Source: Crenothrix sp. D3
Lineage (GTDB): Bacteria > Pseudomonadota > Gammaproteobacteria > Methylococcales > Methylomonadaceae
DNA length: 64,000 nt
Reading direction: 5' to 3'
NCBI GenBank assembly: GCA_002134785.1
Contig: MBQZ01000051.1
Coordinates: 124,001-188,000, forward strand
Part shown: positions 4,837 to 52,377 of the stretch, one piece after another
Layout: each line of letters begins with the position of its first letter
Numbering within the stretch: position 1 is the stretch's first letter
The notes under the pieces: model-generated
What the model was told of the DNA's origin: nothing
Database searches by the model: none
What the model saw: the letters and a program-made list of their open reading frames with translations, nothing else
Made by a program: the position numbers and the translations under genes

Positions 4837-4952
4837 TAGAGCTAACGTACAATAAAATGATGCCGTTCGTGGTGAGCTTGTCGAACCACATTCACACTTC
4901 GACAAGCTCAGTGCGAACGGTTTTGTAATCATTTTATTGACGGTTAGCTCTA
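4837..4952 (+). repeat. Palindromic TA-ended mobile repeat, copy A (116 bp)
   Basis: Nearly the whole element is one palindrome. The ends TAGAGCTAAC (4837-4846) and GTTAGCTCTA (4943-4952) are perfect inverted repeats. An inner ATAAAATGAT / ATCATTTTAT pair follows, and the core 4863-4920 pairs CCGTTCG...GAGCTTGTCGAA with TTCGACAAGCTC...CGAACGG. Related copies lie at about 24971, 26144, 30523, 31711 and 51616. The size and terminal TA agree with the copy at 51616, where insertion at TA can be shown. No transposase is encoded. The likely class is a MITE-like non-autonomous element. Confidence 0.85.
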
Positions 4953-5087: not shown

Positions 5088-7943
5088 TTAAAAGCCCAAG
5101 TCTTGCCTTGGACTCCGAACTTTTCTAGGTTTCTTTGCTTTCTCTGTTTCCATGAGTGGCGCGGTGAGTTGTTGATAGCGTTCAAACAAAAATGCGACGC
5201 GTGCTGTATCGTCTTTGCCACCTTTGTAAGCGTAAGCAGCATCAACGGCTTTATCGAGGGCGTTGTGGGCTTTGAGTAAATCAGCGGGCATATTGCCAGC
5301 GGCGTATAGCGTGGCAAGTGAGTATTTTTGCCCTTGCTCAGTACATAACTTTTCTTCGGCTGTTCGTGCGTCTAAAATCTGTTGTGCGGCGGTTTCGATT
5401 TTGGTTTTTTGAGCAGTCGTTACTTTTTCAGGGAATGGGAAGTTGTTATAAACGATGGTGTTTGAATAACGGTAATCGCTTTTTAGTCGTCCGCAAACAG
5501 TTCGCATCCACGCATTATGAAAGGTTGAAGATAATAAGCCAAAGTCGTAAAGGCTGGCGTTGGGCAACATAAACACCAAGTTACTGGCAATAACCGTTGA
5601 TGGAAAATAACCGATAGGAACAAATTTTCGTTGTTCAGATGAAACGCTTGGGATTAACAAATAGGGCTGGTCGGTTTGGCGAATTTCACCAAACAAATAC
5701 GACGTTTCTGCTAGTTTTTGCGTGGGTACTTTTGTACTGGCTAAGCGCATAACTTTGACAAGTTCCATACGTTTTTTGATTTCAGGTGAGTTAATACGGT
5801 CGTTGGTTGTGCTGCCTGTTAGCCATAAGCAATAACGCGGAATATTATTTATAAATTCTTCCGCGCCTAAAAATCGGCGGATGTATTTGGTTGCAATCGG
5901 GTCGTTTTGGCGAATAGCGTCTGCTTCTTCTTGAGATAACAATAAATATCCGCCATCGGTAGGTTGGCTACCTTTGGTCATTTCAGGTACGTTAGGATTT
6001 AACGGCTTACGGCGTTTATCAATTAATACCGTTGGTGCGTCCACTAAATACGGATTAATTTGCGTGGCTTTAATTTCAATGGGTTCGCCTTTGATGTTGT
6101 CGCCATAATCAAACAGTTGGCACGTTTTAGGGATGTTATCCCTTGAAGGGATAACATCCCTGTCTCCTAAATGAAACCCCATAATCACACAATGCACCGC
6201 CGCTACGCCTCGCCCTTCGTTGTTCCATTGAAAGGTTCGATGGGCAAAATGCAGTTTGATGTTGAGCTTTAATAATTCCGTCCATAAAATCGCCACTTGT
6301 TCGCCTTGCGTTAAGCTGTTGGTGGACACAAACGCAACAGGAATCGCTTTATTCGCTTGAATATAACGAGCGGCTTTAATATGCCACGCGGCGACTAAAT
6401 CCAACACCCCCGCGCCTTTCATGCCGTGAAAAACTAACGCTAAATCTTCTTTTTGGGCTTTGGTTTGATAGCTATAACCCACAAACGGCGGATTGCCCAT
6501 AATAAAACTACATTCTTTGGGATCAAGCACTATTTCCCAATCAATCTGCAAGGCATTCGCACACACAATATTGGCTTTTTTCACTAATGGAATACGGTTG
6601 TAATACAGCCCTAATTCCTGCACTTTTAAATTCATTTGATGATCGACTAGCCACATTGCCAGTGTCGCAATATGCACCGCGCTTTCATCAATGTCTATGC
6701 CGTGAAATTGATGCACGTTACACAAAATTAGGGTATCAACATTGATTTGCGCGGTCAGTGATTTGCCCCATTGCGCTTTAATCACTTCCAATTCCAACAA
6801 GCGCAATTCACGATACGCAATAATCAAAAAATTACCGCACCCACAGGCTGGGTCAAAGAAATTCAATCCAGCTAATTTTTGATGAAACGCAGCTAATCTG
6901 GCTTTTTTACATTTGGCAAATTCAGCGCGTAAATCATCCATAAACAGCGGATTAATAGTTTTTAAGATATTTTCCTCAGAGGTGTAATGTGCGCCAAACT
7001 CGCGGCGTTTTTTGGTGTTGGCATTTGCGGCTTCATCATCAAAGTGCATAATCGCTTGAAATAATGAACCGAAAATCGCGGGGCTAATCTCGCTCCAATC
7101 CAGATTAGCGCATTCAATTAACATTTGACGCGAGGATTCATCAAAATAACATTCGGCTAACGCACCTTCAAATAACGCGCCGTTGATATAGGGAAACTCG
7201 GCTAAATGCTGGGGCAGGTTTTTCAAGCGTTTGTTATCGGCTTTGTTGAGGGTGTCAAACAATTTACTTAACGCGCCGTGTAAATCAGAACCATCGGCGC
7301 GTGTCCAGTTGTGCAGGTAATTTAAAAATGTGCCGTTTTCACCAAACAAGCCCGTGTCTTCGGCAAATAAGCAAAACAGCAAACGTACCAGATAATTTTC
7401 TAAGTCTTTGCCGTCATAACCTGTGGCTTTAATGACATCGTGCAGATTCGCCATTTTTTCAGCGGCAAGTTTGTTGATGTGTTCTTGCTTTTCAATCGCC
7501 AGTTTTTCGTAACCCGCTAAAAATTTAAACTGTTCTATGTGTTGCGGTAAGTCAGCCAGTTTGATTTTTAACGGTTCGGCGTGGGTGTCTAAGTCGTATA
7601 AATGCAGGTTTTGAAAGTCGCTGATTAATACACAGCGTGGCAGCTCTTCATTTTTTAAGTCGTGGAAATACTCGGTGGCTTGCTGGTAGGCTTTGTCCAA
7701 GTCCTTGCCCATTGATTTCATTTCAATCAGCAATAAACTGGGAATAAAGCCATCAATACGCCCTCGTGTGTTGCCCAGTTTTTTAACCCGTTTTTCAAAT
7801 GACACAAAGCGGCGATGATTCAGCCCGAAAATAGCACATAAACCCCGCATGAAATCCTGTGCGTCGCCCATTTCATAAGTGGAATCTGCAAATTCTTTGG
7901 CAAATTTGGCGGCGTTAGTTCTGAGGGTTTCAATGGTTATCAT
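5088..7943 (-). CDS. MmeI-like single-chain restriction endonuclease / adenine-specific DNA methyltransferase (type IIL/IIG)
   Basis: The 951 residues contain the MmeI order. The N-terminal nuclease has Asp64 in GRIDGF and Glu74-x-Lys76 in LLIEMKS, a PD-(D/E)XK site. A helical linker (about 170-330) follows. The gamma-class N6-adenine methyltransferase has motif I FDPACGCGNF (Asp364) and motif IV GNPPF (Asn484). The target-recognition and C-terminal helical region covers about 600-950. Such proteins cut and methylate with one polypeptide, and usually only one strand is methylated. It stands alone, between convergent terminators. A 33-bp perfect palindrome is embedded as codons 595-605. The reading frame is intact, so it is probably functional. 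Confidence 0.9.
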   Translation of the reverse strand: MITIETLRTNAAKFAKEFADSTYEMGDAQDFMRGLCAIFGLNHRRFVSFEKRVKKLGNTRGRIDGFIPSLLLIEMKSMGKDLDKAYQQATEYFHDLKNEELPRCVLISDFQNLHLYDLDTHAEPLKIKLADLPQHIEQFKFLAGYEKLAIEKQEHINKLAAEKMANLHDVIKATGYDGKDLENYLVRLLFCLFAEDTGLFGENGTFLNYLHNWTRADGSDLHGALSKLFDTLNKADNKRLKNLPQHLAEFPYINGALFEGALAECYFDESSRQMLIECANLDWSEISPAIFGSLFQAIMHFDDEAANANTKKRREFGAHYTSEENILKTINPLFMDDLRAEFAKCKKARLAAFHQKLAGLNFFDPACGCGNFLIIAYRELRLLELEVIKAQWGKSLTAQINVDTLILCNVHQFHGIDIDESAVHIATLAMWLVDHQMNLKVQELGLYYNRIPLVKKANIVCANALQIDWEIVLDPKECSFIMGNPPFVGYSYQTKAQKEDLALVFHGMKGAGVLDLVAAWHIKAARYIQANKAIPVAFVSTNSLTQGEQVAILWTELLKLNIKLHFAHRTFQWNNEGRGVAAVHCVIMGFHLGDRDVIPSRDNIPKTCQLFDYGDNIKGEPIEIKATQINPYLVDAPTVLIDKRRKPLNPNVPEMTKGSQPTDGGYLLLSQEEADAIRQNDPIATKYIRRFLGAEEFINNIPRYCLWLTGSTTNDRINSPEIKKRMELVKVMRLASTKVPTQKLAETSYLFGEIRQTDQPYLLIPSVSSEQRKFVPIGYFPSTVIASNLVFMLPNASLYDFGLLSSTFHNAWMRTVCGRLKSDYRYSNTIVYNNFPFPEKVTTAQKTKIETAAQQILDARTAEEKLCTEQGQKYSLATLYAAGNMPADLLKAHNALDKAVDAAYAYKGGKDDTARVAFLFERYQQLTAPLMETEKAKKPRKVRSPRQDLGF
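6129..6161. repeat. 33-bp perfect palindrome inside the restriction gene, exactly 11 codons
   Basis: AGGGATGTTATCCCTT (6129-6144), one central base, then its exact complement (6146-6161). On the coding minus strand it begins at a codon boundary and reads RDVIPSRDNIP (residues 595-605), itself a near repeat. It looks like an in-frame insertion of a small palindromic element in a loop between the methyltransferase and recognition regions. I saw no second copy in this window. Confidence 0.8.
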
Positions 7944-11137: not shown

Positions 11138-11213
11138 GTCCCCATCGTCTAGCGGCCTAGGACACTGCCCTTTCACGGCGGTAACAGGGGTTCGAACCCC
11201 CTTGGGGACGCCA
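11138..11213 (+). tRNA. tRNA-Glu (anticodon TTC), first copy
   Basis: 76 nt with encoded CCA. The acceptor GTCCCC pairs with GGGGAC, the anticodon loop is CTTTCAC, and the T arm is AGGGGTTCGAACCCC. It is identical in sequence to the copy at 11286. Confidence 0.97.
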
Positions 11214-11285: not shown

Positions 11286-11361
11286 GTCCCCATCGTCTAG
11301 CGGCCTAGGACACTGCCCTTTCACGGCGGTAACAGGGGTTCGAACCCCCTTGGGGACGCCA
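11286..11361 (+). tRNA. tRNA-Glu (anticodon TTC), second copy
   Basis: It is base-for-base the same 76-nt gene as the copy at 11138, 72 bases further on, and is followed by a terminator. It arose by tandem duplication; the spacer between copies is not repeated. Confidence 0.97.
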
Positions 11362-20244: not shown

Positions 20245-23200
20245 ATGCCTGCCGACAATAAAAATAAATTCATGCAAAAATTATTGTTTACACACCTGCT
20301 GGTTGTTTTATTAACCCTCAGCTCATTCAGTTATGGCGATGATAAGCTACTAATTGTTGGTAGCGAACAGGATTATCCACCGTTTGCCTTAGGTTTAACA
20401 GATTCCACTGCCGATGGTTTTACTGTCGAATTGTGGCGAGCTGTCGCTGCCGAAGCGCATATCAACTCGACAATTCGCGTCTTGCCCTTTCGTGACATTT
20501 TGTACGAATTTAAAGCAAAGGAAATTGATGTGCTTATCAATTTGGCACAATCCGATGAACGTCGCCTATTTGCTGATTTTACCGTGCCGCACGTTATTGT
20601 TCGTGGAGCTATTTTTGTTCGTAAAGGTGAAAGCAGCATTAGCTCTGAAGCGGCTTTACAGAATAAACGTATTATCGTGCTGAGTGCTGATTTAGCACAC
20701 GATTACGCGGTGTCTAAGGGCTGGAAAAATCAACTGACATTAGTGGGAACGGCTGAAGAAGGTTTTCAATTACTGGCATCAGGTCAGCATGACGCGCTGT
20801 TGCTGAGTAAATTGGCAGGTCAGCAAACGCTGGAAAAATTAGGGTTAACCAACATTGAAGCCTTGCATATTCCAATAGGTTTTGCGCAGAAATTTTCTTT
20901 TGCTGTCCACAAAGGTAATGCGGAATTACTGGCTAAAATCAACGAGGGTTTGGCATTAACCAAAGTAAATGGCGTTTATGATGCGTTGTATGACAAATGG
21001 TTCGGCGTGTATGAAGAAAAAGCATTGCTACCCACGGTGCTTAAATATCTTGCCCCTGTCGTTGGGCTTTTTCTGCTAATCATGGGGATTAGTTTTTATC
21101 GCCGTAATCACGAGAGCAAACAATATGTGCAGAAACTACAAGCCAATAAAGCCTCATTAGAGGCGGATTTATTAGCCGATATTACCTTGCGCAAAGGGCT
21201 TGAAACTGAGCTTAAAAATATGATTGCCCGCAAAGATATGGCGATTAATGCCTTGAATGCAGGGGTTTTTGTGTGGCGTTTTGACACCAACGAACTCATT
21301 TGGGATAAGTGTATGCGCAGACTTTATGGCGTGCCAGAAGACGTAGGCGACAATCACCTTTACTATGATTCTTGGCTTTCACGCATTCATCCTGACGATA
21401 AAAAAAATACGGAGTCTCTACTCTTAGGTGCGATTGCAGGAACGAACTCGTTCGATACAGAGTTCCGCATTGTGCTGGATAATGATATTCGCTATATTCG
21501 TGCGGCGGCGATACTTGAACGTGATGAAAATGCCTATCCAATACAAATGGTGGGGGTCAATCTTGACATCACCGACATCAAAACGGCAGAAGCACGCATT
21601 ATGGAAAGCAACGCGTCTCTGGAAAAACAGGTGGAAATGCGCACTTCAGAACTCAACACAGCATTAGAAGTTGCCAAAAGTGCAAATTCGGCTAAAACGG
21701 ACTTTTTGGCGAATATGAGTCACGAGATAAGAACGCCGATGAACGCGGTTATCGGCTTGGCTTTTCTGCTGCAAAAACAGGAACTGAACCTTATTGCGCG
21801 GGACATGGTCAACAAAATTGATGATGCAGGGCGTTCTCTGTTAGGTGTCATTAATGAATGCTTGGATTTTTCAAAAATTGAGGCCAATTTATTAGAAATA
21901 GAATACGTCCCTTTCCGCCTTTCCGATATTTTGGATAATCTAACCAGCATTATGAACATTCTGGGTGCTAATAAACCCATTAAGCTGTGTATTGCACCCG
22001 CGCCAAAGGGTTCAGATTATCTGCGTGGCGACCCTATTCGCTTAGAGCAGATATTGATTAATCTGGTTAGCAATGCCATCAAGTTCACAGAAAAAGGCGA
22101 AGTCGTCGTTGAAGTTAATATTACCGACTCCGTATCAACATCAACAGCCAATCAAATAAATATTCATTTTTCAGTACGCGATACGGGCATTGGCATTTCG
22201 CGAGAAAAGCACGAAAGTATTTTCCAGCCTTTCGTTCAAGCAGATAACTCGACCACTCGTGTTTATGGTGGATCAGGATTGGGGCTAGCCATCAGTCGTC
22301 GCTTGGTCGATTTGATGGGGGGAACATTGCAACTCACCAGCGAGATAGGTGTTGGTTCTGAATTTTTCTTTGATTTAACCTTCACCGTAATAGGTAACAT
22401 AAAAGCCGATGCAGTCCCTAGTTTGCCGCCTCAAAACGTCCTGATTATTGATAATAATAACATTGCGCGTAAATTACTTGAAGCCACGGTCATTAGCCTT
22501 GGCTGGAAGGCGCAGGTGGTCGATTCTGATATAAAAGCATTACAGATGCTGACTAAAAAAGGAGCGAATTATTTTGATTTTTTACTGTTAGATTGGTCTG
22601 TAGTCGCGGGCAATGGTAAACAGATCGCGATAAGGATTCAACAACAATTTGGCAAAAAACATTGCCCGATTATTATCATGGTAACTGCGCATAATAGAGA
22701 TATTTTATTAACGCACTCTTCTGACAATGCGTATTTTGATAACATTATTTCTAAGCCTGTCACAGGTTTATCTTTGACTAACGCGGTATTAGAAGTCAAA
22801 ATGAAGCACGGTGAACTGGTGTATGACCATAATCAGTCGGCAAGTGCTGAGCCACTAAAGGATAAATATAATCCGTCAGTAAGTGCTGAGCCACTAAAGG
22901 GATTAAATGTGCTGGTGGTTGATGACAGTGAAATTAATCGAGAAGTGGCGCGTCAAATTCTCACAGGCGAAGGGGCTACTATCGAAGATGCCGAGAATGG
23001 ACTTGATGCCATCAATCAACTAAAAGCTAAACCAAACTATTTTCATGTGGTACTGATGGATGTGCAGATGCCCGTCATGGATGGTTACACCGCGACCCAA
23101 CAAATTCGGATGCTGCCCGAACTGAAGCATTTGCCCATTATTGCACTGACGGCAGGCGCATTCAAAAGTCATCGTACTGCTGCACTGGAGGCGGGCATGG

Positions 23201-23916
23201 ATGATTTTATTGCCAAGCCTTTTGATGTCGATGAATTAGTGGCGTGCGTTCATCGACTCGCTCAACCAAAACAAATTCAAAAAACATCGGTAACAATCGC
23301 GCCACAACTACCGCACACCAGTTATAAAGATATGCCTTTAATTGACATAGACAATGGATTAAAAAAATGGCGTGACCCTGCCTTATATCAGAAGCACTTA
23401 CGCTTATTTTTAACGCAACACGCGCAAAATGTGAACCTTGTTCATGAAAAACTATTAAATACCGATAACACGGCGGCACTGGCAATCACTCATAAACTGT
23501 TGGGTGCGGCGGGTGCGCTGTCGCTGCAGCGTATTGTTCACGTTATTAAAAACCTTGATGAGGCGATTCGTGAACAGGATGATGTGAAGACAGAAAGCGA
23601 GTGTTTCTCGCTGGTTTTTGCGCAAACCATTGATGCGATTCACAAGTACATCGACGATGAAATACCACAACAAACGGAAGAATCAACGCTTGCTGTCTCC
23701 CCTATTTCAATTATTAAAGGACTGGAACAACTGATTGTCACATTGGATAGTGATGATCCAGACCTTATCGAGCCTCAGCTTGCGACACTAGCGGGGCAAT
23801 TACCCAAGGCGGCATTTGACGAGTTAGCCATTGCCATTGAAAATTTTGATTTTCGCGAGGCAGAGACTCTGGCAACAGTCCTGCTCACTGCATTTTTTGA
23901 CTCTACACAGGAATAG
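20245..23916 (+). CDS. Hybrid sensor histidine kinase: SBP3-TM-PAS-HisKA-HATPase-REC-REC-Hpt
   Basis: The 1223 residues begin with a signal sequence (about 10-31). A periplasmic family-3 solute-binding sensor (about 33-255) suggests detection of an amino acid or small ligand. One membrane span (about 268-288, VVGLFLLIMGISFY) and a PAS_3 domain (about 340-445) follow. The kinase has His493 in SHEIRTPMN, N-box LVSNAIKF and DTGIGI. Receiver 1 (about 730-845) has Asp783 but a weakened acidic pocket (IIDNNN). Receiver 2 is canonical (Asp893/Asp894, phospho-acceptor Asp939), and the Hpt has His1083 (THKLLGAAG). It starts an operon: the HD-GYP regulator begins 3 bases after its stop. Confidence 0.93.
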   Translation: MPADNKNKFMQKLLFTHLLVVLLTLSSFSYGDDKLLIVGSEQDYPPFALGLTDSTADGFTVELWRAVAAEAHINSTIRVLPFRDILYEFKAKEIDVLINLAQSDERRLFADFTVPHVIVRGAIFVRKGESSISSEAALQNKRIIVLSADLAHDYAVSKGWKNQLTLVGTAEEGFQLLASGQHDALLLSKLAGQQTLEKLGLTNIEALHIPIGFAQKFSFAVHKGNAELLAKINEGLALTKVNGVYDALYDKWFGVYEEKALLPTVLKYLAPVVGLFLLIMGISFYRRNHESKQYVQKLQANKASLEADLLADITLRKGLETELKNMIARKDMAINALNAGVFVWRFDTNELIWDKCMRRLYGVPEDVGDNHLYYDSWLSRIHPDDKKNTESLLLGAIAGTNSFDTEFRIVLDNDIRYIRAAAILERDENAYPIQMVGVNLDITDIKTAEARIMESNASLEKQVEMRTSELNTALEVAKSANSAKTDFLANMSHEIRTPMNAVIGLAFLLQKQELNLIARDMVNKIDDAGRSLLGVINECLDFSKIEANLLEIEYVPFRLSDILDNLTSIMNILGANKPIKLCIAPAPKGSDYLRGDPIRLEQILINLVSNAIKFTEKGEVVVEVNITDSVSTSTANQINIHFSVRDTGIGISREKHESIFQPFVQADNSTTRVYGGSGLGLAISRRLVDLMGGTLQLTSEIGVGSEFFFDLTFTVIGNIKADAVPSLPPQNVLIIDNNNIARKLLEATVISLGWKAQVVDSDIKALQMLTKKGANYFDFLLLDWSVVAGNGKQIAIRIQQQFGKKHCPIIIMVTAHNRDILLTHSSDNAYFDNIISKPVTGLSLTNAVLEVKMKHGELVYDHNQSASAEPLKDKYNPSVSAEPLKGLNVLVVDDSEINREVARQILTGEGATIEDAENGLDAINQLKAKPNYFHVVLMDVQMPVMDGYTATQQIRMLPELKHLPIIALTAGAFKSHRTAALEAGMDDFIAKPFDVDELVACVHRLAQPKQIQKTSVTIAPQLPHTSYKDMPLIDIDNGLKKWRDPALYQKHLRLFLTQHAQNVNLVHEKLLNTDNTAALAITHKLLGAAGALSLQRIVHVIKNLDEAIREQDDVKTESECFSLVFAQTIDAIHKYIDDEIPQQTEESTLAVSPISIIKGLEQLIVTLDSDDPDLIEPQLATLAGQLPKAAFDELAIAIENFDFREAETLATVLLTAFFDSTQE

Positions 23917-23919
23917 ACG

Positions 23920-24921
23920 ATGTTATCAATCATACTGTGTGTTGATGATGAGCCCATTAATCTGAGTTTATTACGCAATATACTACAAGACGATTATAAA
24001 TTGGTGTTTGCCCGCAATGGTGAGGAGGCATTGGCAGCGGCACTTAAACATAATCCTGATTTAATCTTACTCGATGTACAAATGCCCGATATAAGTGGCT
24101 TTGAAGTCGCACAACAATTAAAAGCCAATTTAAAAACAACGTCTATCCCCATCGTTTTTGTGACCTCTTTATTTGATGACGATCATGAAAAAATGGGGTT
24201 TGATGTCGGTGGTATTGACTACATCATCAAACCTATTTCACCCAGTGTTGTCCGCGCTCGTGTAAAAACTCACTTGACCTTAATACACGCCTCTCAACTT
24301 GAAGCCAGCTATCGAGATGCTATTTATATGCTGGGTGTGGCGGGGCATTACAACGACACTAATACAGGCGCACATATCTGGCGAATGGCAGCTTATGCAC
24401 ATTTATTGGCACAAGCGGTTGGATGGAATGAAAAACGTGCAAAACTGTTAGAAATGGCGGCACCGCTGCACGACACAGGAAAGATTGGCATCCCCGATAC
24501 GATTCTACAAAAAGCCACCGAACTCGATGCCGAAGAATGGGAAACCATGAAGCAACATTCGCAGATTGGTTATGACATTTTAAATACCAGTAACGTACCT
24601 TTATTTCAGCTAGCCGCCGAAATTGCACTCAACCATCATGAAAGATGGGATGGTAGCGGCTATCCAAATGGACTTGCGGGGGAAAATATACCCGAATCAG
24701 CCCGCATCGTGGCTATTGCTGATGTCTTTGACGCGCTGTCTACGAGTCGCCCTTATAAAGAACCGTGGCCATTGGAGCGTATTTTAGTGACACTAGAGGA
24801 GTTGGCTGGGAATCACTTAGAGGAAAGATTAGTCACTGTTTTCATAAAAATTCTGCCACAGATTCTGGAAATCAAGGCTAAATGGGACAGCCGCTCATTA
24901 CTTGACGGTTTTAAGTCGTAA
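23920..24921 (+). CDS. Response regulator with HD-GYP c-di-GMP phosphodiesterase output (RpfG-like), copy 1
   Basis: 333 residues: receiver domain (about 1-120, acidic pair in CVDDEP, phospho-acceptor Asp52 in LLDVQMP, Lys in YIIKPIS) and HD-GYP domain (about 135-325). The catalytic HD is His184-Asp185 in HDTGKIGIPD; downstream come NHHERWDGSGYPNGL and the DVFDALSTSRPYK tail. All visible metal-ligand positions are present, so it should hydrolyse c-di-GMP to pGpG or GMP. It directly follows the hybrid kinase and is its likely phosphorelay target through the Hpt domain. Confidence 0.95.
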   Translation: MLSIILCVDDEPINLSLLRNILQDDYKLVFARNGEEALAAALKHNPDLILLDVQMPDISGFEVAQQLKANLKTTSIPIVFVTSLFDDDHEKMGFDVGGIDYIIKPISPSVVRARVKTHLTLIHASQLEASYRDAIYMLGVAGHYNDTNTGAHIWRMAAYAHLLAQAVGWNEKRAKLLEMAAPLHDTGKIGIPDTILQKATELDAEEWETMKQHSQIGYDILNTSNVPLFQLAAEIALNHHERWDGSGYPNGLAGENIPESARIVAIADVFDALSTSRPYKEPWPLERILVTLEELAGNHLEERLVTVFIKILPQILEIKAKWDSRSLLDGFKS

Positions 24922-24970
24922 GTCGCTGATGATATATCTTTTAACATTTTTGCTGGCAGGATTGTTAAGC

Positions 24971-25040
24971 TGTTCGTGGTTCGACAAGCTCACAGATCAG
25001 CGCGAACGGTTTTTTAATCACAAATACTGCGTTAGCTATA
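24971..25040. repeat. Palindromic TA-ended repeat, copy B (partial or diverged)
   Basis: The core GTTCGTGGTTCGACAAGCTC and GCGAACGG is followed by TTTTTTAATCACAAATACTG and a right end GCGTTAGCTATA. This end matches the GTTAGCTCTA end of copy A. The left half is reduced. It lies in the gap between the first and second HD-GYP genes. Confidence 0.65.
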
Positions 25041-25114
25041 ACGCCTAACATTTTTATTTTAGTGATACAGGGCATTACTTCCTGAATTTTTTAATGCTAC
25101 AAGAGGAATAAACT

Positions 25115-26107
25115 GTGAAAAAAGAGACCATATTGTGTGTTGATGATGACCAGATTCAATTAGGTTTGTTACGCAGCATATTACAAAACGACTACGAATT
25201 GGTGTTTGCGCATAATGGTGCTGAGGCATTGGTAGCCGTACAAAAATATAAACCTGCGTTAATTTTACTTGATGTAGAAATGCCTGATATAAATGGCTTT
25301 GAAGTGAGCAGAAAACTTAAATCTGATTCAAAAACAGGGCATATTCCCATTATTTTTGTGAGTTCCTTAATTGACGAAATGTATGAGAACAGAGGCTTTG
25401 ATTTAGGCTGCGTTGATTATATTACCAAGCCCATTTTCCCGCGTATTATCCTCGCTCGCGTGCGAACGCATTTATCTTTAGCGCGTGCTTCTCGGCTTGA
25501 AGCCTGCTATCGAGGAATCATTTGTACGCTGGGTACTATTGGACTTTACAATGACGACAAGATGAAGGCACACCTTTCGCGAGTGGCGGCATACAGCCAT
25601 TTACTGGCACAAACTATCGGGTGGAACGAAGATAAGGCAACCTTGATGGAAATGGCAGTACCGATGTACGACACGGGAAAAATTGCTATATCCGATACGA
25701 TTCTACGAAAACCCGACCAACTCAGTCCCGAAGAATGGGACATCATGAAACAACATCCGCGTATTGGTTATGATATATTGAGTAAGGTTGACGCGCCCCT
25801 ATTTCAACTAGCCGCAGAGATTGCACTCAATCATCATGAAAGATGGGATGGTAGTGGCTATCCTAATGGTCTTGTTGGTGAAGAGATACCCGAATCAGCC
25901 CGCATCGTTGCCATTGCCGATGTTTTTGACGCGCTATCTATGTCTCTCTCTTATAAAGAAGCGTGGCCGATGAAGTCTATTTTATTGACAATACAAGAGT
26001 CGGCTGGAAATCACTTCGACAAAAATCTGGTCGCTGTTTTTATGGACACGCTACCGCAAATTCTGGAAATCAAGGCTGAATGGGACAGTCATTCATCACC
26101 CGATTAA
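25115..26107 (+). CDS. REC-HD-GYP paralogue with lost catalytic His (copy 2)
   Basis: 330 residues from a GTG start, with GAGGAA upstream. The receiver is intact (Asp53 in LLDVEMP, CVDDDQ). In the HD-GYP domain the HD motif reads Tyr185-Asp186 (MYDTGKIAISD) where both sister genes have His-Asp. The upstream helix reads KMKAHLSRVAAYSH, against TGAHIWRMAAYAH in copy 1. NHHERWDGSGYPNGL is retained. Loss of the first metal-ligand His predicts a dead or altered phosphodiesterase that may still bind c-di-GMP or partner proteins. It sits between two repeat copies and is probably transcribed separately. Confidence 0.92.
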   Translation: MKKETILCVDDDQIQLGLLRSILQNDYELVFAHNGAEALVAVQKYKPALILLDVEMPDINGFEVSRKLKSDSKTGHIPIIFVSSLIDEMYENRGFDLGCVDYITKPIFPRIILARVRTHLSLARASRLEACYRGIICTLGTIGLYNDDKMKAHLSRVAAYSHLLAQTIGWNEDKATLMEMAVPMYDTGKIAISDTILRKPDQLSPEEWDIMKQHPRIGYDILSKVDAPLFQLAAEIALNHHERWDGSGYPNGLVGEEIPESARIVAIADVFDALSMSLSYKEAWPMKSILLTIQESAGNHFDKNLVAVFMDTLPQILEIKAEWDSHSSPD

Positions 26108-26143
26108 ATGCCTAGCACTCTAAGTATTACATGGATTAAAAAA

Positions 26144-26242
26144 CCGTTCGCACTAAGCTGTGAGCTTGTCGAACAGTCAAAGCGTGAATATGGTTCGACA
26201 AGCTCACCACGAACGGCATCATTTTCTTGTGCTTTAGTTATA
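26144..26242. repeat. Palindromic TA-ended repeat, copy C
   Basis: Core CCGTTCG (26144) to CGAACGG (26216), with inner arms GAGCTTGTCGAAC and GGTTCGACAAGCTC. The right arm ATCATTTTCTTGTGCTTTAG ends in TTATA at 26242 and is very like the right arm of copy F. The left arm is diverged and its end is unclear (near 26121). It fills the gap between the second HD-GYP gene and the second kinase. Confidence 0.75.
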
Positions 26243-26282
26243 GCTTGCTCATTTTATTATATCTAACTGGTAGATTCGATTC

Positions 26283-29200
26283 ATGCCTCAATATCTCAGT
26301 AAATTTTTTGTAAACCGTCCGCTGAAAATCGCTGTAGGGTTATTTATAGTGAGTTTGCTAATTGCCACGTTAGCCGCACAGCAACAACGCATAAATAATC
26401 AAGCTGTATTACAGCAATTGTTTAATGATGAGGCAAATAAATTAGTTGATTCTATTATTACCCATATCAACACCTATAACCATGCACTACTGGGTATACG
26501 CGGACTGATTGTGTCGCATGGCGATGACAGTATTACCCGCAAAGCGTTCCAGCTCTATACTATGTCACGCGATTTCGATAGGGAATATAGGGGTGCGCTG
26601 GGTTTTGGATTTATTCGGAAGGTGACGCAGGCAGACGAGGAAAATTTTCTGACTAAAGCGCGTAAAGATGGTATGCCCAATTTTGCTATTAAGGATTTCG
26701 CCCCTCATGAGGGTGATCACTATATTATTCAGTACATTGAACCCGCTGATCGTAATCTAGCGGCTATCGGTTTGGATACTGCCTCTGAAGAAAATCGGCG
26801 CACTGCCGCGATACAGGCAATGCGAGACGGTACGGCAACCATAACCGCGCCTATTACACTGGTTCAAACATCTGGCTTATCATTGCGGTCATTTTTGATT
26901 CTGTTGCCTGTGTATCATTTAACGATGCCGCTTAATACCGCCGAGCTGCGCGAAGCCGCGACTTTTGGCTGGGCTTATGCCCCAATGGTGATTGATGATG
27001 TGCTAACGCAAGCGGGCAGGGCTAGTAGTGATCAAATTACCTTTCAAGTCGTCGATGTGAATCTTGATAAACAGACGACTATTTTTTATTCGAGTGCCAC
27101 ATTTGAGGAAGCGGCTAACACATCGATCAGCACTGCAATTCCCCGCGTTATCTTTGGGCGGCAGTGGCAATTTAACTTACGCGCCCAGCCACTTTTCTAT
27201 AAACACCATACACAATTATCCCCACTTTGGCTAGCCTGTTTTATTGGCTTTTTCGGGTTGATTACCGCGTTATCCGCTTACTTGTATTTGTCTTATTCTC
27301 AGCGCAAAGTGAAGGATTTAATCGAACAAGCGCGACTCGCGGCAATTGTTGAAAGTGCCAATGATGCCATTATCAGTTTCGATTTGAATGGCGTTATTAC
27401 CAGTTGGAACAATGCCGCCGACAGGCTGTTTGATTATTCGCCTACGGAAGCCATCGGAAAAAAAATCTATGATTTGATTACTCCCGATGAATTTCTTCCA
27501 GAAATCGAGCCTTTTTTGCGCAGAATTAGGCGTGGAAAGATTATTGCTCGTAGCAATACGATTCGCAAAACGCGAGCGGGGAAACTGATTGATGTCGCGG
27601 TGTCGTACTCACTGATTTACGACAACAGGGGTATTGTCATCGGTGTCGCCAATACCATCACCGATATTACCGAGCAAAAACGCAGTGAAGACCTGTTTCG
27701 ATTGACCATAGAAGCCATTCCCGATGCTATCGTCACGGTCAATCATGAAAACATAATAACCTTGTTGAATCAAAAGGCAGTTGATCTATTTGGTTATAAA
27801 AGGTCGGAATTATTGGGTCAAAACATCAGTTTTTTGATGCCAAATCACTATCGACAACAGTATTTTCGAGCCGATGCAAATTTTGATACACCATTAATGG
27901 ATCTCCCGCTGTGGTCTGGCGAACAAAATTTGTCTGTGTTGCGTAAGGATGGTGCTGAAATCCCCATCGAAATTCAGTTAAGTCCGATTCAGAGTGCCAC
28001 CGAACACTTCACATTAACAACCATTACCGATATTAGAGCGCGTAAAAACCTTGAAACCGAGGTTCAAACCACACTGGCACGTCTGAAAATGGCGATTACC
28101 GCCTTGAATGCAGGTGTTTGGGTGTGGCGTTTGGATGACAATACACTCTTATGGGACGAACAAATGTTCACGCTGTATGATGCCCCTGAAAGTCTCAAAG
28201 AAACCCAGTTATACTACAACTTCTGGACATCCCGTCTTCATGCTGACGATAGAGAAGAGTCCGAGTCTTTAATCATGGGCGCTATTGCTGGTAAAAATTC
28301 ATTCGATACAGAATTCCGCATTGTGCTTGATAATGGCAACATTCGTCATATTCGCGCATCGGCAATACTTGAACGGGATGCAAAAGGTAAGCCAATACAA
28401 ATGGTGGGGGTCAATCAAGACATTACGACTGTCAAAACCGCCGCTCAAAAAATTAAGCAACTCGATGAACGACGCACTACCGAGTTAAAAGCACTCAACG
28501 CCTCATTAGAACAACAGGTAGACAATCGTACCATTGAACTCAACTTAGCAATGGAAGTTGCTACACTGGCTAATACGGCTAAAACGAATTTTTTGGCTAA
28601 TATGACTCATGAGATAAGAACCCCGATGAATGCCATTATCGGCTTGGCTTATTTGCTACAAAAGGAGGGGCTAAACCCCAATGTGCGGGACATGGTTAAG
28701 CGAATTGATAGTGCTGGGCGTTCTCTGCTGGGTATTATTAACGAATGTCTGGATTTTTCAAAAATTGAGGCAAATCTTTTAGAACTAGAATCCGTGTCTT
28801 TTTGTTTGCCTGAGTTGTTACATAATGTGGCTAATATAATGACCACGCTGGTTGCTGAAAAGCCTATTAAGGCACATATTTTACCTCTGCCCAAAGGGGT
28901 TGATTATCTGATTGGAGACCCCGTTCGCTTGGAGCAGGTGTTGCTTAATTTGATTAGCAACGCCGTCAAGTTTACTAAAAAAGGCGAAGTAATCGTTGAA
29001 GTTCGCGTTATCGACTCGGTATCGACAGGCAGCCACATTTATCTTCACTTCTCAGTGCGAGACACAGGTATCGGTATTGCGCTAGACAAACAGGAGAGCA
29101 TTTTTCATCCGTTCATTCAAGCTGATAATTCAACCACCCGCCTTTATGGTGGCACGGGATTGGGGCTGAGCATCTCTCGTACCTTAGTCAAACTAATGGG

Positions 29201-30497
29201 CGGAGCATTACAACTCAAAAGTGAAGTTGGCGTGGGCAGTGATTTTTCTTTTGAATTAGAACTGGCAGTGAATAAGCCTACCGACAATTCATCGTCTATT
29301 GCGTTCCATCAGAACGCGTTGATTGTTGATAACAATACTCCCGTGAGTAGGGCTTTTCAATCAGTACTGTACGATCTTGGCTGGACTGCCACTGCGGTGG
29401 ACTCTGTTGAAAACGCATTATTGACGATGACTAAAAACGGAAAGGATTATTTTGATATTCTACTGTTGGATGAGCAACTATTTGAAGGTGATAGTATTCA
29501 GTTAGTGACTAACATTGATAAACAGCTAAATAAAGAACACTGCTCAATTATTATTGCGAGTTCTAATTATGATCAGGGACAGACTCTACTAAAGCAGTTT
29601 AGTGGGATTGCTGGTAGCGTTATTTCCAAATCTGTGACCGATTTATCGTTGTTTAATGCGATATTGGACATCAAGAAAAAGCGCGGTGAACGAGATAAAC
29701 AGCGCATGAATGGCGAACGGCTAACAGGAGTCAATTTGCTGGTAGTTGATGACAGTGAGATTAATCGAAACGTTGCCTATCAAATTCTCACTGGCGAAAA
29801 AGCTAACGTTGAATGCACGGGAAATGGTCGTGATGCGATTGCATTGCTTAGAGCAAAACCACACTACTTTCATGCGGTACTGATGGATGTACAGATGCCT
29901 ATTATGGATGGCTACGCGGCTACTCGAGAAATCCGTACTCTGCCTGAGTTGAATGACTTAGCTATTATTGCACTGACGGCTGGGGCATTCAAAACGCATC
30001 GCACGGCGGCATTTGAAGCAGGAATGAATGATTTTATTGCCAAGCCCTTTGACGTGGATGAGCTAATCGCCTGCGTTGAACGACACGTTTGCCATAATAT
30101 TCAAATCGAACCCGCGCATATCCTGCCAATTTTACAGAGTCCCACTATAGTAACTGATACTATGCCCTTGATTGACGTAGAACACGGTTTAAAAAAATGG
30201 CGGGATGTTACACTTTACAAAGAATGCTTAGACCTATTTATACAACAACATGGCCACGATGCTGAACGTTTTCATGATAATCCAGCAGAAGCGAAAGCGA
30301 TTGCGCATAAATTATTGAGTGCGTCGGGTGCGCTGTCGCTGAAACGCATTAGCCATCTTGCCAAAGAAATTGAAAACGCTTTTAGTAATAACGAGGATGT
30401 CGAGATATTAAGTAGTCGCTTCGCCCCCCTGTTATCGGAAACAGTGGATGCTATCAATGCTTATCTTTACGCTGATATAACAATAGACATAAAGTAA
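26283..30497 (+). CDS. Hybrid sensor histidine kinase: TM-CHASE-TM-PAS-PAS-PAS-HisKA-HATPase-REC-REC-Hpt
   Basis: 1404 residues. The extracytoplasmic CHASE domain (about 45-290) lies between two membrane spans (about 13-32 and 318-340). Three PAS domains follow (about 352-470, 478-590, 612-715). The kinase has His776 in THEIRTPMN, with LISNAVKF and DTGIGI motifs. Receiver 1 keeps Asp1063 but has IVDNNT instead of an acidic pair. Receiver 2 is complete (Asp1156/1157, Asp1202), and the Hpt has His1342 (AHKLLSASG). From the third PAS domain onward it is clearly paralogous to the first kinase, while the sensor half differs (CHASE instead of SBP3). The two kinases therefore share output modules but read different signals. 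Confidence 0.93.
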   Translation: MPQYLSKFFVNRPLKIAVGLFIVSLLIATLAAQQQRINNQAVLQQLFNDEANKLVDSIITHINTYNHALLGIRGLIVSHGDDSITRKAFQLYTMSRDFDREYRGALGFGFIRKVTQADEENFLTKARKDGMPNFAIKDFAPHEGDHYIIQYIEPADRNLAAIGLDTASEENRRTAAIQAMRDGTATITAPITLVQTSGLSLRSFLILLPVYHLTMPLNTAELREAATFGWAYAPMVIDDVLTQAGRASSDQITFQVVDVNLDKQTTIFYSSATFEEAANTSISTAIPRVIFGRQWQFNLRAQPLFYKHHTQLSPLWLACFIGFFGLITALSAYLYLSYSQRKVKDLIEQARLAAIVESANDAIISFDLNGVITSWNNAADRLFDYSPTEAIGKKIYDLITPDEFLPEIEPFLRRIRRGKIIARSNTIRKTRAGKLIDVAVSYSLIYDNRGIVIGVANTITDITEQKRSEDLFRLTIEAIPDAIVTVNHENIITLLNQKAVDLFGYKRSELLGQNISFLMPNHYRQQYFRADANFDTPLMDLPLWSGEQNLSVLRKDGAEIPIEIQLSPIQSATEHFTLTTITDIRARKNLETEVQTTLARLKMAITALNAGVWVWRLDDNTLLWDEQMFTLYDAPESLKETQLYYNFWTSRLHADDREESESLIMGAIAGKNSFDTEFRIVLDNGNIRHIRASAILERDAKGKPIQMVGVNQDITTVKTAAQKIKQLDERRTTELKALNASLEQQVDNRTIELNLAMEVATLANTAKTNFLANMTHEIRTPMNAIIGLAYLLQKEGLNPNVRDMVKRIDSAGRSLLGIINECLDFSKIEANLLELESVSFCLPELLHNVANIMTTLVAEKPIKAHILPLPKGVDYLIGDPVRLEQVLLNLISNAVKFTKKGEVIVEVRVIDSVSTGSHIYLHFSVRDTGIGIALDKQESIFHPFIQADNSTTRLYGGTGLGLSISRTLVKLMGGALQLKSEVGVGSDFSFELELAVNKPTDNSSSIAFHQNALIVDNNTPVSRAFQSVLYDLGWTATAVDSVENALLTMTKNGKDYFDILLLDEQLFEGDSIQLVTNIDKQLNKEHCSIIIASSNYDQGQTLLKQFSGIAGSVISKSVTDLSLFNAILDIKKKRGERDKQRMNGERLTGVNLLVVDDSEINRNVAYQILTGEKANVECTGNGRDAIALLRAKPHYFHAVLMDVQMPIMDGYAATREIRTLPELNDLAIIALTAGAFKTHRTAAFEAGMNDFIAKPFDVDELIACVERHVCHNIQIEPAHILPILQSPTIVTDTMPLIDVEHGLKKWRDVTLYKECLDLFIQQHGHDAERFHDNPAEAKAIAHKLLSASGALSLKRISHLAKEIENAFSNNEDVEILSSRFAPLLSETVDAINAYLYADITIDIK

Positions 30498-30522
30498 AAC
30501 GGCATTTTATCAACCCTAACTT

Positions 30523-30636
30523 TATAGTATTTTTGGTTTATGTTAATCCGTTCATGGTGAGCTTGTCGAACCATGAACACCCTTCGACAAGCTCAGGGCG
30601 AACGGTTGCGACTTAACTAAAAACTGAAATACTATA
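30523..30636. repeat. Palindromic TA-ended repeat, copy D (114 bp)
   Basis: Perfect 10-bp ends TATAGTATTT (30523-30532) and AAATACTATA (30627-30636) enclose the core CCGTTCATGG...CGAACGG (30548-30605). Length and TA ends agree with copies A and F. It occupies nearly the whole gap between the second kinase and the third HD-GYP gene. Confidence 0.85.
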
Positions 30637-30671
30637 TTAGGCTCGCGAATAAACCACATGAAGAATAGAAC

Positions 30672-31676
30672 ATGACACATAACATAATACTGTGCGTTGA
30701 TGATGACTCCATTAATCTTTTGCTGTTACAAAGCACTTTGCAAGAAGATTACTCATTAATTTTTGCGCGTAATGGGGCTGACGCATTGACAATGGCAGAG
30801 AGTCAATTGCCTGCTTTAATTTTGCTCGATGTAAATATGCCCGACATGACTGGATTTGAAGTTGCACATCATCTTAAATTGAATCCAAAAACAAAACATA
30901 TTCCCATTATTTTTGTTACCTCCTTACTCGATGAAGGCGATGAGGAATTGGGTTTTGATGTAGGCGGTGTTGATTACATTACCAAACCTATTTCCCCCGC
31001 CATTGTCCGCGCTCGCGTGCGGACGCATTTGTCTTTAGTGTCTGCGTCCCAACTTGAAGCCAGCTATCGAGATGCCATTTATATGTTAGGTGAAGCGGGG
31101 CATTACAATGACTCAGACACAGGCGTACACATCTGGCGAATGGCAGCATATTGTTATGCGTTAGCACTGGCAGCAGGCTGGAAAAAGGGTCGTGCAAAAT
31201 TGCTGGAAATGGCAGCCCCTATGCACGACATGGGCAAGATTGGTACACCCGATGCCATTCTAAAAAAACCAGACAAACTGACCCCAGAAGAATGGCTTAT
31301 CATGAGGGAACATTCGCGTATGGGTCATGATATTTTAAAAAAGAGCAATGCCCCTGTATTTAAACTAGCCGCAGAAATTGCCCTTAATCATCATGAAAGA
31401 TGGGATGGCACTGGTTATCCTAATGGTCTCGCAGGGGAAGCCATACCCGAATCAGCCCGCATCGTTGCCATTGCCGATGTCTTCGATGCCTTATCCATGC
31501 GTCGCCCTTACAAAGAAGCGTGGCCTATGGAACGTATTTTACCAACGTTGCTTGAATTGTCTGAAAGTCACTTGGATAAAAGACTGGTGACTATTTTTAT
31601 CGACATCATGCCCGATATTCTGAAAATTAAAGACGACTGGGATTCTCGCTCACCACTTGACAACTTTGTGCGATAA
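30672..31676 (+). CDS. Response regulator with HD-GYP c-di-GMP phosphodiesterase output, copy 3
   Basis: 334 residues with the same plan as copy 1: receiver (Asp53 in LLDVNMP, CVDDDS) and HD-GYP domain with His185-Asp186 in MHDMGKIGTPD and NHHERWDGTGYPNGL. The visible catalytic motifs are intact. It lies downstream of the second hybrid kinase, so the kinase plus HD-GYP unit occurs twice in this region. Here a 114-bp repeat separates the pair, unlike the tightly coupled first pair. Confidence 0.95.
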   Translation: MTHNIILCVDDDSINLLLLQSTLQEDYSLIFARNGADALTMAESQLPALILLDVNMPDMTGFEVAHHLKLNPKTKHIPIIFVTSLLDEGDEELGFDVGGVDYITKPISPAIVRARVRTHLSLVSASQLEASYRDAIYMLGEAGHYNDSDTGVHIWRMAAYCYALALAAGWKKGRAKLLEMAAPMHDMGKIGTPDAILKKPDKLTPEEWLIMREHSRMGHDILKKSNAPVFKLAAEIALNHHERWDGTGYPNGLAGEAIPESARIVAIADVFDALSMRRPYKEAWPMERILPTLLELSESHLDKRLVTIFIDIMPDILKIKDDWDSRSPLDNFVR

Positions 31677-51615: not shown

Positions 51616-51732
51616 TATAGCCAAAGCAGTTTAAATTGATTTGCAAAACCGTTCGCCCTGAGCTTGTCGAAGGGCTGTGGTGGTTCGACAAGCTCACCAC
51701 GAACGGTATCATTTTATTGTGCTTTGGCTATA
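51616..51732. mobile_element. Palindromic TA-ended repeat, copy F, inserted in a gene (117 bp)
   Basis: Perfect 13-bp ends TATAGCCAAAGCA (51616-51628) and TGCTTTGGCTATA (51720-51732) enclose the core CCGTTCG (51649) to CGAACGG (51706). Deleting one TA plus the interior (115 bp) rejoins the minus-strand frame as ...QRY-HFTASAQ... and gives 270 codons. This identifies TA as the duplicated target, as for IS630/Tc1-type elements. No transposase is present, so it is a non-autonomous passenger. Confidence 0.85.
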
Positions 51733-52377
51733 GCGTTGTATGAGTTGTTCAAATAACGGTGTTTTTGGAGGGATAATTAACGCCGCTAAAGCAAGCGATT
51801 GAATCATCAATGCGTCTATCGTAGCAACATGATGGGCGATTAATAGGCTGACTTGCTTTGCTTGAATCATGTTTGCAGGCGATGATTGATTATCAGAAAT
51901 CACTTTTAAACAATGTACTAATTCACCTGTAGTAAAGCGAGTCGCTGTTTCATAAAATGCTGACGCTTCCATATCGCATAATTCAGCATGATCGTAGTTG
52001 AGTTGTGGGCTTGAGCTGGTTCTTATTGCGCACGAAGGACACAATGCTTTGCCTATTAACGGTGGATAATAATTTTTGTGACTATCCACATCAATAATTT
52101 TATCAACCACATATAAAGCACCGATGGCATAATCGCGGTGTCCTGCAATACCGACATTCATTAATATCGGCTGTTCACTCATTGCAAATAATGCTTGCGT
52201 ATAGCCTACACCCGCTGCCATTGCAGACTTACCTAATCCTGTCACCGTTAAACAAATTTCACCTTGTACATACACCGCAAACGGCTGTATATCCACGCGT
52301 TTTTTTAATTTAAAATGCTCGACCAATGGCTTGGCTTCACAAGGTAAGGCGGTATAGATAAAAATTTTGTAGCTCAT
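51709..52377 (-). CDS. Nucleoside phosphorylase/nucleosidase-like protein, C-terminally truncated by a repeat insertion
   Basis: Present frame is 222 residues. The phosphorylase core is visible: CLTVTGLGKSAMAAGVGY, LMNVGIAGHRDYAIGAL, the substrate motif CDMEASAFYETATRF and CLKVISDNQSS. These mark the PNP/MTAN superfamily. The last six residues (SQSTIK) are encoded by the inserted repeat. The original protein would have had 270 residues. The catalytic core is complete, so activity may remain. The substrate may be a purine nucleoside such as methylthioadenosine, or a hopanoid-pathway adenosyl compound; this cannot be decided. Confidence 0.8.
   Translation of the reverse strand: MSYKIFIYTALPCEAKPLVEHFKLKKRVDIQPFAVYVQGEICLTVTGLGKSAMAAGVGYTQALFAMSEQPILMNVGIAGHRDYAIGALYVVDKIIDVDSHKNYYPPLIGKALCPSCAIRTSSSPQLNYDHAELCDMEASAFYETATRFTTGELVHCLKVISDNQSSPANMIQAKQVSLLIAHHVATIDALMIQSLALAALIIPPKTPLFEQLIQRYSQSTIK

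What the first reader, a model, noticed from the sequence alone, without database searches (positions are those of the whole stretch)
4837..4952. Near-complete 116-bp palindrome that can fold end to end
Copy A pairs from its terminal TAGAGCTAAC to the core, so either strand or its RNA can form one long hairpin. With copies D and F it defines an element of 114-117 bp with TA ends and a conserved inner core but variable outer arms. The arms differ between copies (TAGAGCTAAC, TATAGTATTT, TATAGCCAAAGCA) yet match within each copy, so both arms of one copy co-vary.
Basis: seen in the sequence. Interest (0 to 1): 0.6.

Follow-up and report, generated by a model that had tools for sequence, protein, structure and literature searches.

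The report
Mini-transposon carrying a paired hairpin repeat
The palindrome is one of many copies of a gene-less mini-transposon that a common bacterial insertion sequence (IS630 type) probably moves around a methane-oxidising bacterium, and its centre is a small hairpin repeat that occurs on its own in very distant bacteria.

Summary
The palindrome is real (DNA fold z -11.7). It is a MITE: 33 complete copies were parsed in this genome, and 8 of 8 genomes of the genus hold at least partial matches. It ends in TA (65 of 66 ends), and its arms match ends of IS630-family elements in this genome and its relatives, one arm consensus at 25/25. One relative has the empty site with a single TA; one copy splits a gene at a single TA.

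Co-variation lies inside, in the 3-bp stems flanking TTCGACAAGCTCA. That unit (hairpin plus one-sided CGAACGG tag) is a REP-like repeat also found without the MITE in other phyla. It nests in its own loops, and 0 of 31 Y1-transposase family loci had it nearby, though the MITE abuts two broken Y1-like fragments. Each part has printed precedents; this unit and the combination were not found in my searches.

The parts
4837..4952 (+). Copy A: complete 116-bp MITE, subfamily A; TA at both ends
   Evidence: empty site in G006
4837..4861 (+). Left arm; the A-subfamily consensus matches the 3' (C-terminal side) end of the IS630 in G000:C60 at 23 of 25
4928..4952 (-). Right arm; the A-subfamily consensus matches IS630 ends of relatives (L111 5' end and L110 3' end) at 23 of 25
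4863..4889 (-). Left REP-like unit: hairpin GTGG-TGAGCTTGTCGAA-CCAC with outward tag CCGTTCG
   Evidence: sequence; stem co-variation; tag conservation
4895..4920 (+). Right REP-like unit: hairpin CAC-TTCGACAAGCTCA-GTG with outward tag CGAACGG
   Evidence: sequence
24970..25040 (+). Degraded copy: altered REP unit and right-arm end remain (read by eye)
26134..26242 (-). Degraded F-type copy with a nested REP unit in the loop of one unit; right arm truncated (read by eye)
30523..30636 (+). Copy D: a different TA-ended element (TATAGTATTT ends, 5 copies found in the genome) with the same REP-pair core
51616..51732 (-). Copy F: complete 117-bp MITE, subfamily F; overlaps the 3' end of the ORF at 51709-52377 (-)

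Best explanation
Copy A is a MITE: a gene-less element whose outer arms are IS630-family insertion-sequence ends and whose middle is a passenger, an inverted pair of REP-like hairpin units. An IS630 transposase supplied by full-length IS copies would bind the arms, excise the element and insert it at a TA, duplicating the TA. The end-to-end palindrome results from this make-up (IS ends that are nearly inverted repeats, plus an inverted pair of hairpins), not from selection for pairing of the outer arms. Shown by comparison: copies, TA ends, an empty site, arm/IS-end match. Inferred: mobilisation in trans by this transposase. How the REP-like unit itself first spread is open.
For: The IS630 transposase in G000:C60 has HTH_Tnp_IS630 and DDE_3 domains and a terminal sequence identical over 25/25 to the F-subfamily left-arm consensus; 13 contig ends of the genome stop inside the same transposase C-terminus, as expected of a multicopy IS that broke the assembly. 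Full-length elements in relatives carry arm-like ends on both sides (L110 in G007, L108 in G002). Relative G006, 91% identical upstream, has the same site without the element and with one TA..GAGATAGTCAGTCGTTAAAC versus ..CTGATA[element]TAGTCCGTCGTTAAAC. A copy in L148 splits a Y1_Tnp-like gene, both halves of which are recognised, at CATT-TA-CATTG (read by eye). 8 of 8 genomes of the genus hold at least partial matches.
Against: No transposition was observed. The only IS630 copy assembled over most of its length in this genome (C60) is split over two frames and lacks a readable second end; intactness of the collapsed copies cannot be read. The A-subfamily arms match known IS ends at only 23 of 25, and the right arm equally well to a 5' and a 3' end, so its exact partner was not found. 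A clean empty site was shown at one locus only; the other five relatives aligned are too diverged beyond the stop codon.
Confidence: 0.9

Rival explanations
1. The element is built by hairpin-targeted insertion: the REP-like unit is itself mobile and inserts into the centre or loop of existing palindromes (MITE arms, other palindromes, its own loop), giving nested palindromes.
For: By eye the same REP pair sits in at least four different envelopes (TATAGCTAAC, TATAGTATTT, TTAAGCC, AAGGATATGG). One copy, L175, has the MITE arms around an unrelated palindrome GTAGGTGCGAATGAATTCGCACCTAC. In own-genome copies 15 of 15 alignment insertions of 8 nt or more fall at reference positions 40-72, inside the REP pair; in a second set 11 of 13 do, one of the 11 (L233) repeating an own-genome copy and the other 2 coming from one record, L207, where I judge that the parser joined two elements. 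One nest type is present in 9 of 33 complete copies. Di Nocera 2013 describes REP dimers inserted within palindromes (PMC3733652 section 7).
Against: Nested forms recur at the same few positions, so few events copied with the MITE could explain them. My parser requires intact arms, so insertions in arms would be missed. Only 15 of 78 dimers in the named-genome loci have arm similarity above the 99th percentile of shuffles. No enzyme was found.
Confidence: 0.2
2. The REP-like core is the mobile part, moved by a RAYT / IS200-type (Y1) transposase, and the arms are incidental.
For: The hairpin-plus-one-sided-tag design resembles REPs. The genome has one Y1_Tnp gene over the cut-off. Two further Y1-like gene fragments lie directly against the motif, in L148 and L068.
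Against: In L148 the fragments are the two sides of a gene interrupted by the whole MITE, and in L068 the match to the RAYT stops where the MITE begins, so both look like insertions into a gene, not like a gene with its own repeats. 0 of 31 Y1_Tnp family loci from this genome and 12 searched genomes (two of the 31, L262 and L271, overlap) have the motif (up to 1 mismatch) in the flanks held, at most 1.5 kb and less at contig ends. Of 9 searched genomes outside the genus, 6 have no Y1_Tnp match, including one with 89 motif copies (G274). The intact Y1 gene here is flanked by GTAGGATGGGT repeats instead.
Confidence: 0.06
3. A functional regulatory RNA or terminator hairpin kept by selection on pairing.
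For: Copy A lies 10 nt after the stop codon of an S41 peptidase gene and before its terminator-like hairpin, so its RNA would fold strongly.
Against: Outer arms do not co-vary. The relative without the element keeps the terminator-like hairpin. No Rfam family reached its gathering score in the window apart from three tRNAs.
Confidence: 0.05

Closest known systems
RUP of Streptococcus pneumoniae (mobilised, it is proposed, by IS630-Spn1)
   Same: 107 bp, TIRs like an IS630 element of the same host, TA target, about 110 copies, insertions into transposase genes (PMC2229807 passages; PMC3049150 passages).
   Different: Here the centre is a pair of REP-like hairpins that also exist outside the MITE and across phyla; no such core is described for RUP in the passages read.
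Correia/NEMIS elements of Neisseria
   Same: TA-ended MITEs with 24-26 bp inverted repeats and stable folding (PMC2229807 Table 1; PMC3049150 passages).
Anabaena variabilis GTAG-15 REP dimers inside TATAGGA...TCCTATA palindromes (Di Nocera et al. 2013, PMC3733652)
   Same: A REP dimer in the middle of a long palindrome with TATAG ends: the same architecture (section 7).
   Different: Another REP type and other arms; in the passages read that paper calls the arms target palindromes and does not link them to an IS.
CGTC-tagged REPs (PMC3733652)
   Same: Hairpin with a one-sided tag, predominantly in dimers, several phyla, no dedicated transposase.
   Different: Tag here is CCGTTCG/CGAACGG; the co-varying stem plus one constant T-A pair makes 4 bp with an 11-nt loop, against 8-9 bp stems and 4-5 nt loops (Table 1).

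Membership tests
IS630-derived MITE | Short, no coding capacity of its own, multiple near-identical dispersed copies | tested here: met
   33 complete copies of 87-161 bp, most 116-139 bp
IS630-derived MITE | Terminal inverted repeats shared with an IS630-family element of the same host | tested here: met
   (25/25 for the F left arm; 23/25 for the other three arm consensus sequences, the right arms against IS ends of relatives)
IS630-derived MITE | TA target duplication | tested here: met
   empty site in one relative; 65 of 66 TA ends; interrupted gene
IS630-derived MITE | Mobilisation by the IS transposase in trans | not testable with these tools
   needs an excision or transposition assay
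REP (core unit) | Short extragenic hairpin in high copy, often as inverted dimers, tag at one end | tested here: met
   239 matches at up to 1 mismatch versus 5 for the reversed control; one-sided tag conserved; extragenic position was not counted genome-wide
GTAG REP | GTAG tag and an associated RAYT gene | tested here: not met
   tag is CGAACGG; 0 of 31 Y1_Tnp family loci with the motif; two broken Y1-like fragments abut a MITE insertion
CGTC REP | CGTC tag, 8-9 bp stem, 4-5 nt loop | tested here: not met
   tag CCGTTCG; 3 co-varying pairs plus a constant T-A, 11-nt constant loop

The most novel reading that the evidence does not exclude
The unit N3-TTCGACAAGCTCA-N3'-CGAACGG is a transposase-less mobile hairpin of several phyla that spreads by inserting at the loops or centres of existing palindromes, and in this genus it has taken IS630 ends as a vehicle; the MITE is thus a layered element in which hairpins are inserted into hairpins.
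Probability: 0.2. Interest if true: 0.65.

Novelty: new variant of a known kind. Interest (0 to 1): 0.4.

Why it matters
Di Nocera et al. left open how REPs without a dedicated transposase spread (PMC3733652 abstract and discussion). Here one such repeat rides inside a MITE with IS630 ends in one genus, which gives a concrete route for amplification, and the REP dimers inside TATAG-ended palindromes of Anabaena may be the same arrangement. The unit's stem co-varies while loop and tag stay fixed between distant genomes, which hints at recognition of a folded single strand and makes the missing enzyme searchable.

Tried and rejected
Outer-arm co-variation: rejected. RAYT as mover: disfavoured, with two abutting broken Y1-like fragments told above. 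Known RNA family: none at gathering score besides three tRNAs; the low-threshold hits on the 401-nt stretch (best AaHKsRNA41, 39.1 bits, E 1.2e-7, gathering score 97) were set aside as far below the cut-offs. A general rule that REP dimers sit in palindromic envelopes in all genomes: not supported. 20 of 36 own dimers but only 15 of 78 dimers in the 74 named-genome loci exceed the 99th percentile of shuffled arm scores; with a direct TATAGCTAA test 35 of 78 have it on both sides, all in Methylococcales-titled loci, and 0 of the 24 dimers in loci with other titles have it on both sides. A plasmid search for the element gave 9 records, none covering 80% of it. The first arm regex was wrong by one base and its arm counts are not used. 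Literal-motif paper searches found no relevant paper; figures and supplements are not searched, so a printed consensus in a figure cannot be excluded.

Full report
OBSERVATION. Window 4837-4952 folds end to end far better than chance (DNA z -11.7, RNA z -12.3). The window is part of a 3.63-Mb assembly. I infer a methanotroph from the monooxygenase subunit B gene next to the IS630 copy (PF04744); the named loci with the same arms on both sides all carry Methylococcales titles, among them Methylovulum psychrotolerans Sph1 (L057).

COPIES AND ENDS. A BLAST-type search scored 40 places in the genome, its ceiling, out of 144 candidates; arm searches gave 112 matches at up to 2 mismatches against 2 for the reversed control. 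I fetched 60 further stretches and parsed 33 complete copies with both arms: 21 of subfamily A and 12 of subfamily F. TA is present at 65 of 66 ends. Truncated copies and copies with damaged arms were dropped from these counts.

THE IS630 PARTNER. DDE_3 gives one hit in the genome, next to that monooxygenase gene, with two overlapping ORFs of 106 and 174 aa carrying HTH_Tnp_IS630 and DDE_3 domains. Its 3' end is TATAGCTAAAGCACAATAAAATGAT, identical to the F-subfamily left-arm consensus (25/25; 23/25 to A). 13 contig ends of this genome stop inside the same C-terminus (counted), so the IS appears multicopy and collapsed. The F right arm matches the 5' end of the full-length IS in G002 (L108) at 23/25; the A right arm matches IS ends in relatives at 23/25, a 5' end in L111 and a 3' end in L110 equally. 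Full-length IS elements with both ends were read in L108 (886 bp) and L110 (919 bp, uninterrupted 274-aa ORF). The left/right asymmetry of the MITE thus follows, at least for subfamily F, the two different ends of an IS.

INSERTION SITE. In G006, 91% identical upstream, the site lacks the element and has one TA. In L148 a copy splits a Y1_Tnp-like gene; its two halves are both recognised by phmmer, and by eye the junction reads CATT-TA-[element]-TA-CATTG. In L068 a copy stands where the match to a Y1-like gene breaks off. In G006 a related left arm starts at a TA about 200 nt further on, where the window has the plain sequence; only one end of that element was seen.

ARMS. For 25 nt: left versus own right 0.773, left versus other rights 0.775, left versus other lefts 0.885, right versus other rights 0.801; 3270 of 5000 shuffled pairings equal or exceed the own pairing; in 0 of 33 copies is the own right arm closer than other left arms. 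Over the outer 10 nt own pairing is 0.845 against 0.831 (330 of 5000 shuffles), a weak trend seen within subfamily F (534 of 5000) and not in A (4391 of 5000). The claim of co-varying outer arms fails.

CORE. The core is an inverted pair of units N3-TTCGACAAGCTCA-N3'-CGAACGG. In 104 distinct own-genome contexts the three flanking pairs are Watson-Crick in 97, 89 and 89, against shuffled means of 48, 33 and 49; offsets 4-6 show no excess. In 153 contexts from the 74 loci they are 152, 150 and 144, against 73, 63 and 75. That second set is not independent: the pattern fixes one unit of each pair (stem TGG/CCA), 51 of the 74 loci are Methylococcales-titled, and coinciding contig lengths suggest that several are the genus genomes G001, G003, G004, G006 and G007. 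In the 23 loci with other titles the counts are 59, 59 and 57 of 59 against about 30 by shuffling, but nearly all are two stem types, TGG/CCA (28) and CCC/GGG (26). A test without that constraint: in 20 fetched stretches of motif-bearing genomes of the same phylum, chosen by me from listed places, 25 of 28 distinct units have a fully paired 3-bp stem and 14 of 28 the exact tag; the 3 failures are L249, L250 and L259. The tag is exact in 68 of 104 own and 125 of 153 other contexts. Shuffling ignores relatedness; what counts is that several fully paired stem types recur (TGG/CCA, CTG/CAG, CCC/GGG, CAC/GTG, TCC/GGA; TGC/GCA, GGC/GCC, CCT/AGG by eye).

SPREAD. In 299 genomes of the phylum 131 have the 13-mer at all, most of them once to three times, near the level of the reversed control, while a few are rich (G084 121, G274 89, G343 40, G263 40, G079 32; own 177) with 0 in the reversed control for each of these.

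ENVELOPES AND NESTING. The same REP pair lies in TATAGTATTT-ended elements (5 copies found, including copy D) and, by eye, in other palindromic surroundings (L154, L188-L192). L175 has MITE arms around a different palindrome. Of 78 REP pairs in the 74 named-genome loci, 35 have MITE-type arms on both sides, 8 on one, 35 on neither; all 35 two-sided ones are in Methylococcales-titled loci, while of the 24 in other titles (Chloroflexi, Betaproteobacteria, Omnitrophota, Sulfuricurvum and others) 23 have neither and 1 has one side. So the REP pair exists without the MITE. Of 33 complete own copies 15 are longer than 119 bp; 13 of these give 15 insertions of 8 nt or more, all at reference positions 40-72; the aligner flagged none in the other two, L148 and L153, though L148 has the common nest. 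A second set repeats positions 40, 42, 46, 60 and 67 in 11 of 13 insertions, one of them a repeat of an own copy; the other two come from L207, which I judge mis-joined. The parser needs intact arms, so this is not an unbiased test.

MOVER OF THE CORE. 0 of 31 Y1_Tnp family loci (two overlap) have the motif within the flanks held, up to 1.5 kb; 6 of 12 searched genomes have no Y1_Tnp match. Against this stand L148 and L068, where Y1-like fragments touch the motif because a whole MITE sits in or against them. Lack of a dedicated transposase is also printed for CGTC REPs (PMC3733652; abstract, passages, sections 14 and 17 read), but the unit does not meet the CGTC definition.

KNOWN OR NEW. MITEs with IS630-like ends or TA ends are known (RUP, Correia; PMC2229807 passages; PMC3049150 passages; PMC10969869 passages). 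REP dimers inside TATAG-ended palindromes are reported for Anabaena (PMC3733652 section 7). New here, as far as searches of an open-licence library can tell, are this REP unit and its carriage by IS630 ends.

Noticed in passing
L140 (G000:C51:194615-194744): A complete copy is flanked on both sides by the same stretch of about 21-23 bp (TATAACTTATGGATTCACTGC...), unlike the TA-only duplication elsewhere (read by eye).
   Followed up: no
L148 (G000:C29:212312-213556) and L068:2321-2617: Copies sit inside, or against a fragment of, Y1_Tnp/RAYT-like genes; in L148 a D-type element lies just downstream.
   Followed up: partly
L112:1398-1812 (G006:C37): The start of a MITE (left arm and first REP unit) lies directly against an IS630 transposase fragment, perhaps an insertion or an intermediate in MITE formation.
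   Followed up: no
window 20245-31676: Paralogous histidine-kinase and HD-domain response-regulator genes in repeated blocks; elements of this family lie in the gaps between them (24970-25040, 26134-26242, 30523-30636).
   Followed up: partly
window 11138-11213 and 11286-11361: Two identical tRNA genes 148 bp apart.
   Followed up: no
L032 (G000:C60): An IS630 copy sits beside a monooxygenase subunit B gene; its two ORFs overlap in different frames near a run of A, possibly a frameshift site, and the next ORF looked to me like another IS transposase (not searched).
   Followed up: no
L031 (G000:C15): The genome's one Y1_Tnp gene over the cut-off is flanked by GTAGGATGGGT repeats that look like GTAG-tagged REPs.
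   Followed up: partly
window 5088-7943: MmeI-like restriction-modification enzyme gene (minus strand), convergent with the S41 peptidase gene, with copy A between them.
   Followed up: no
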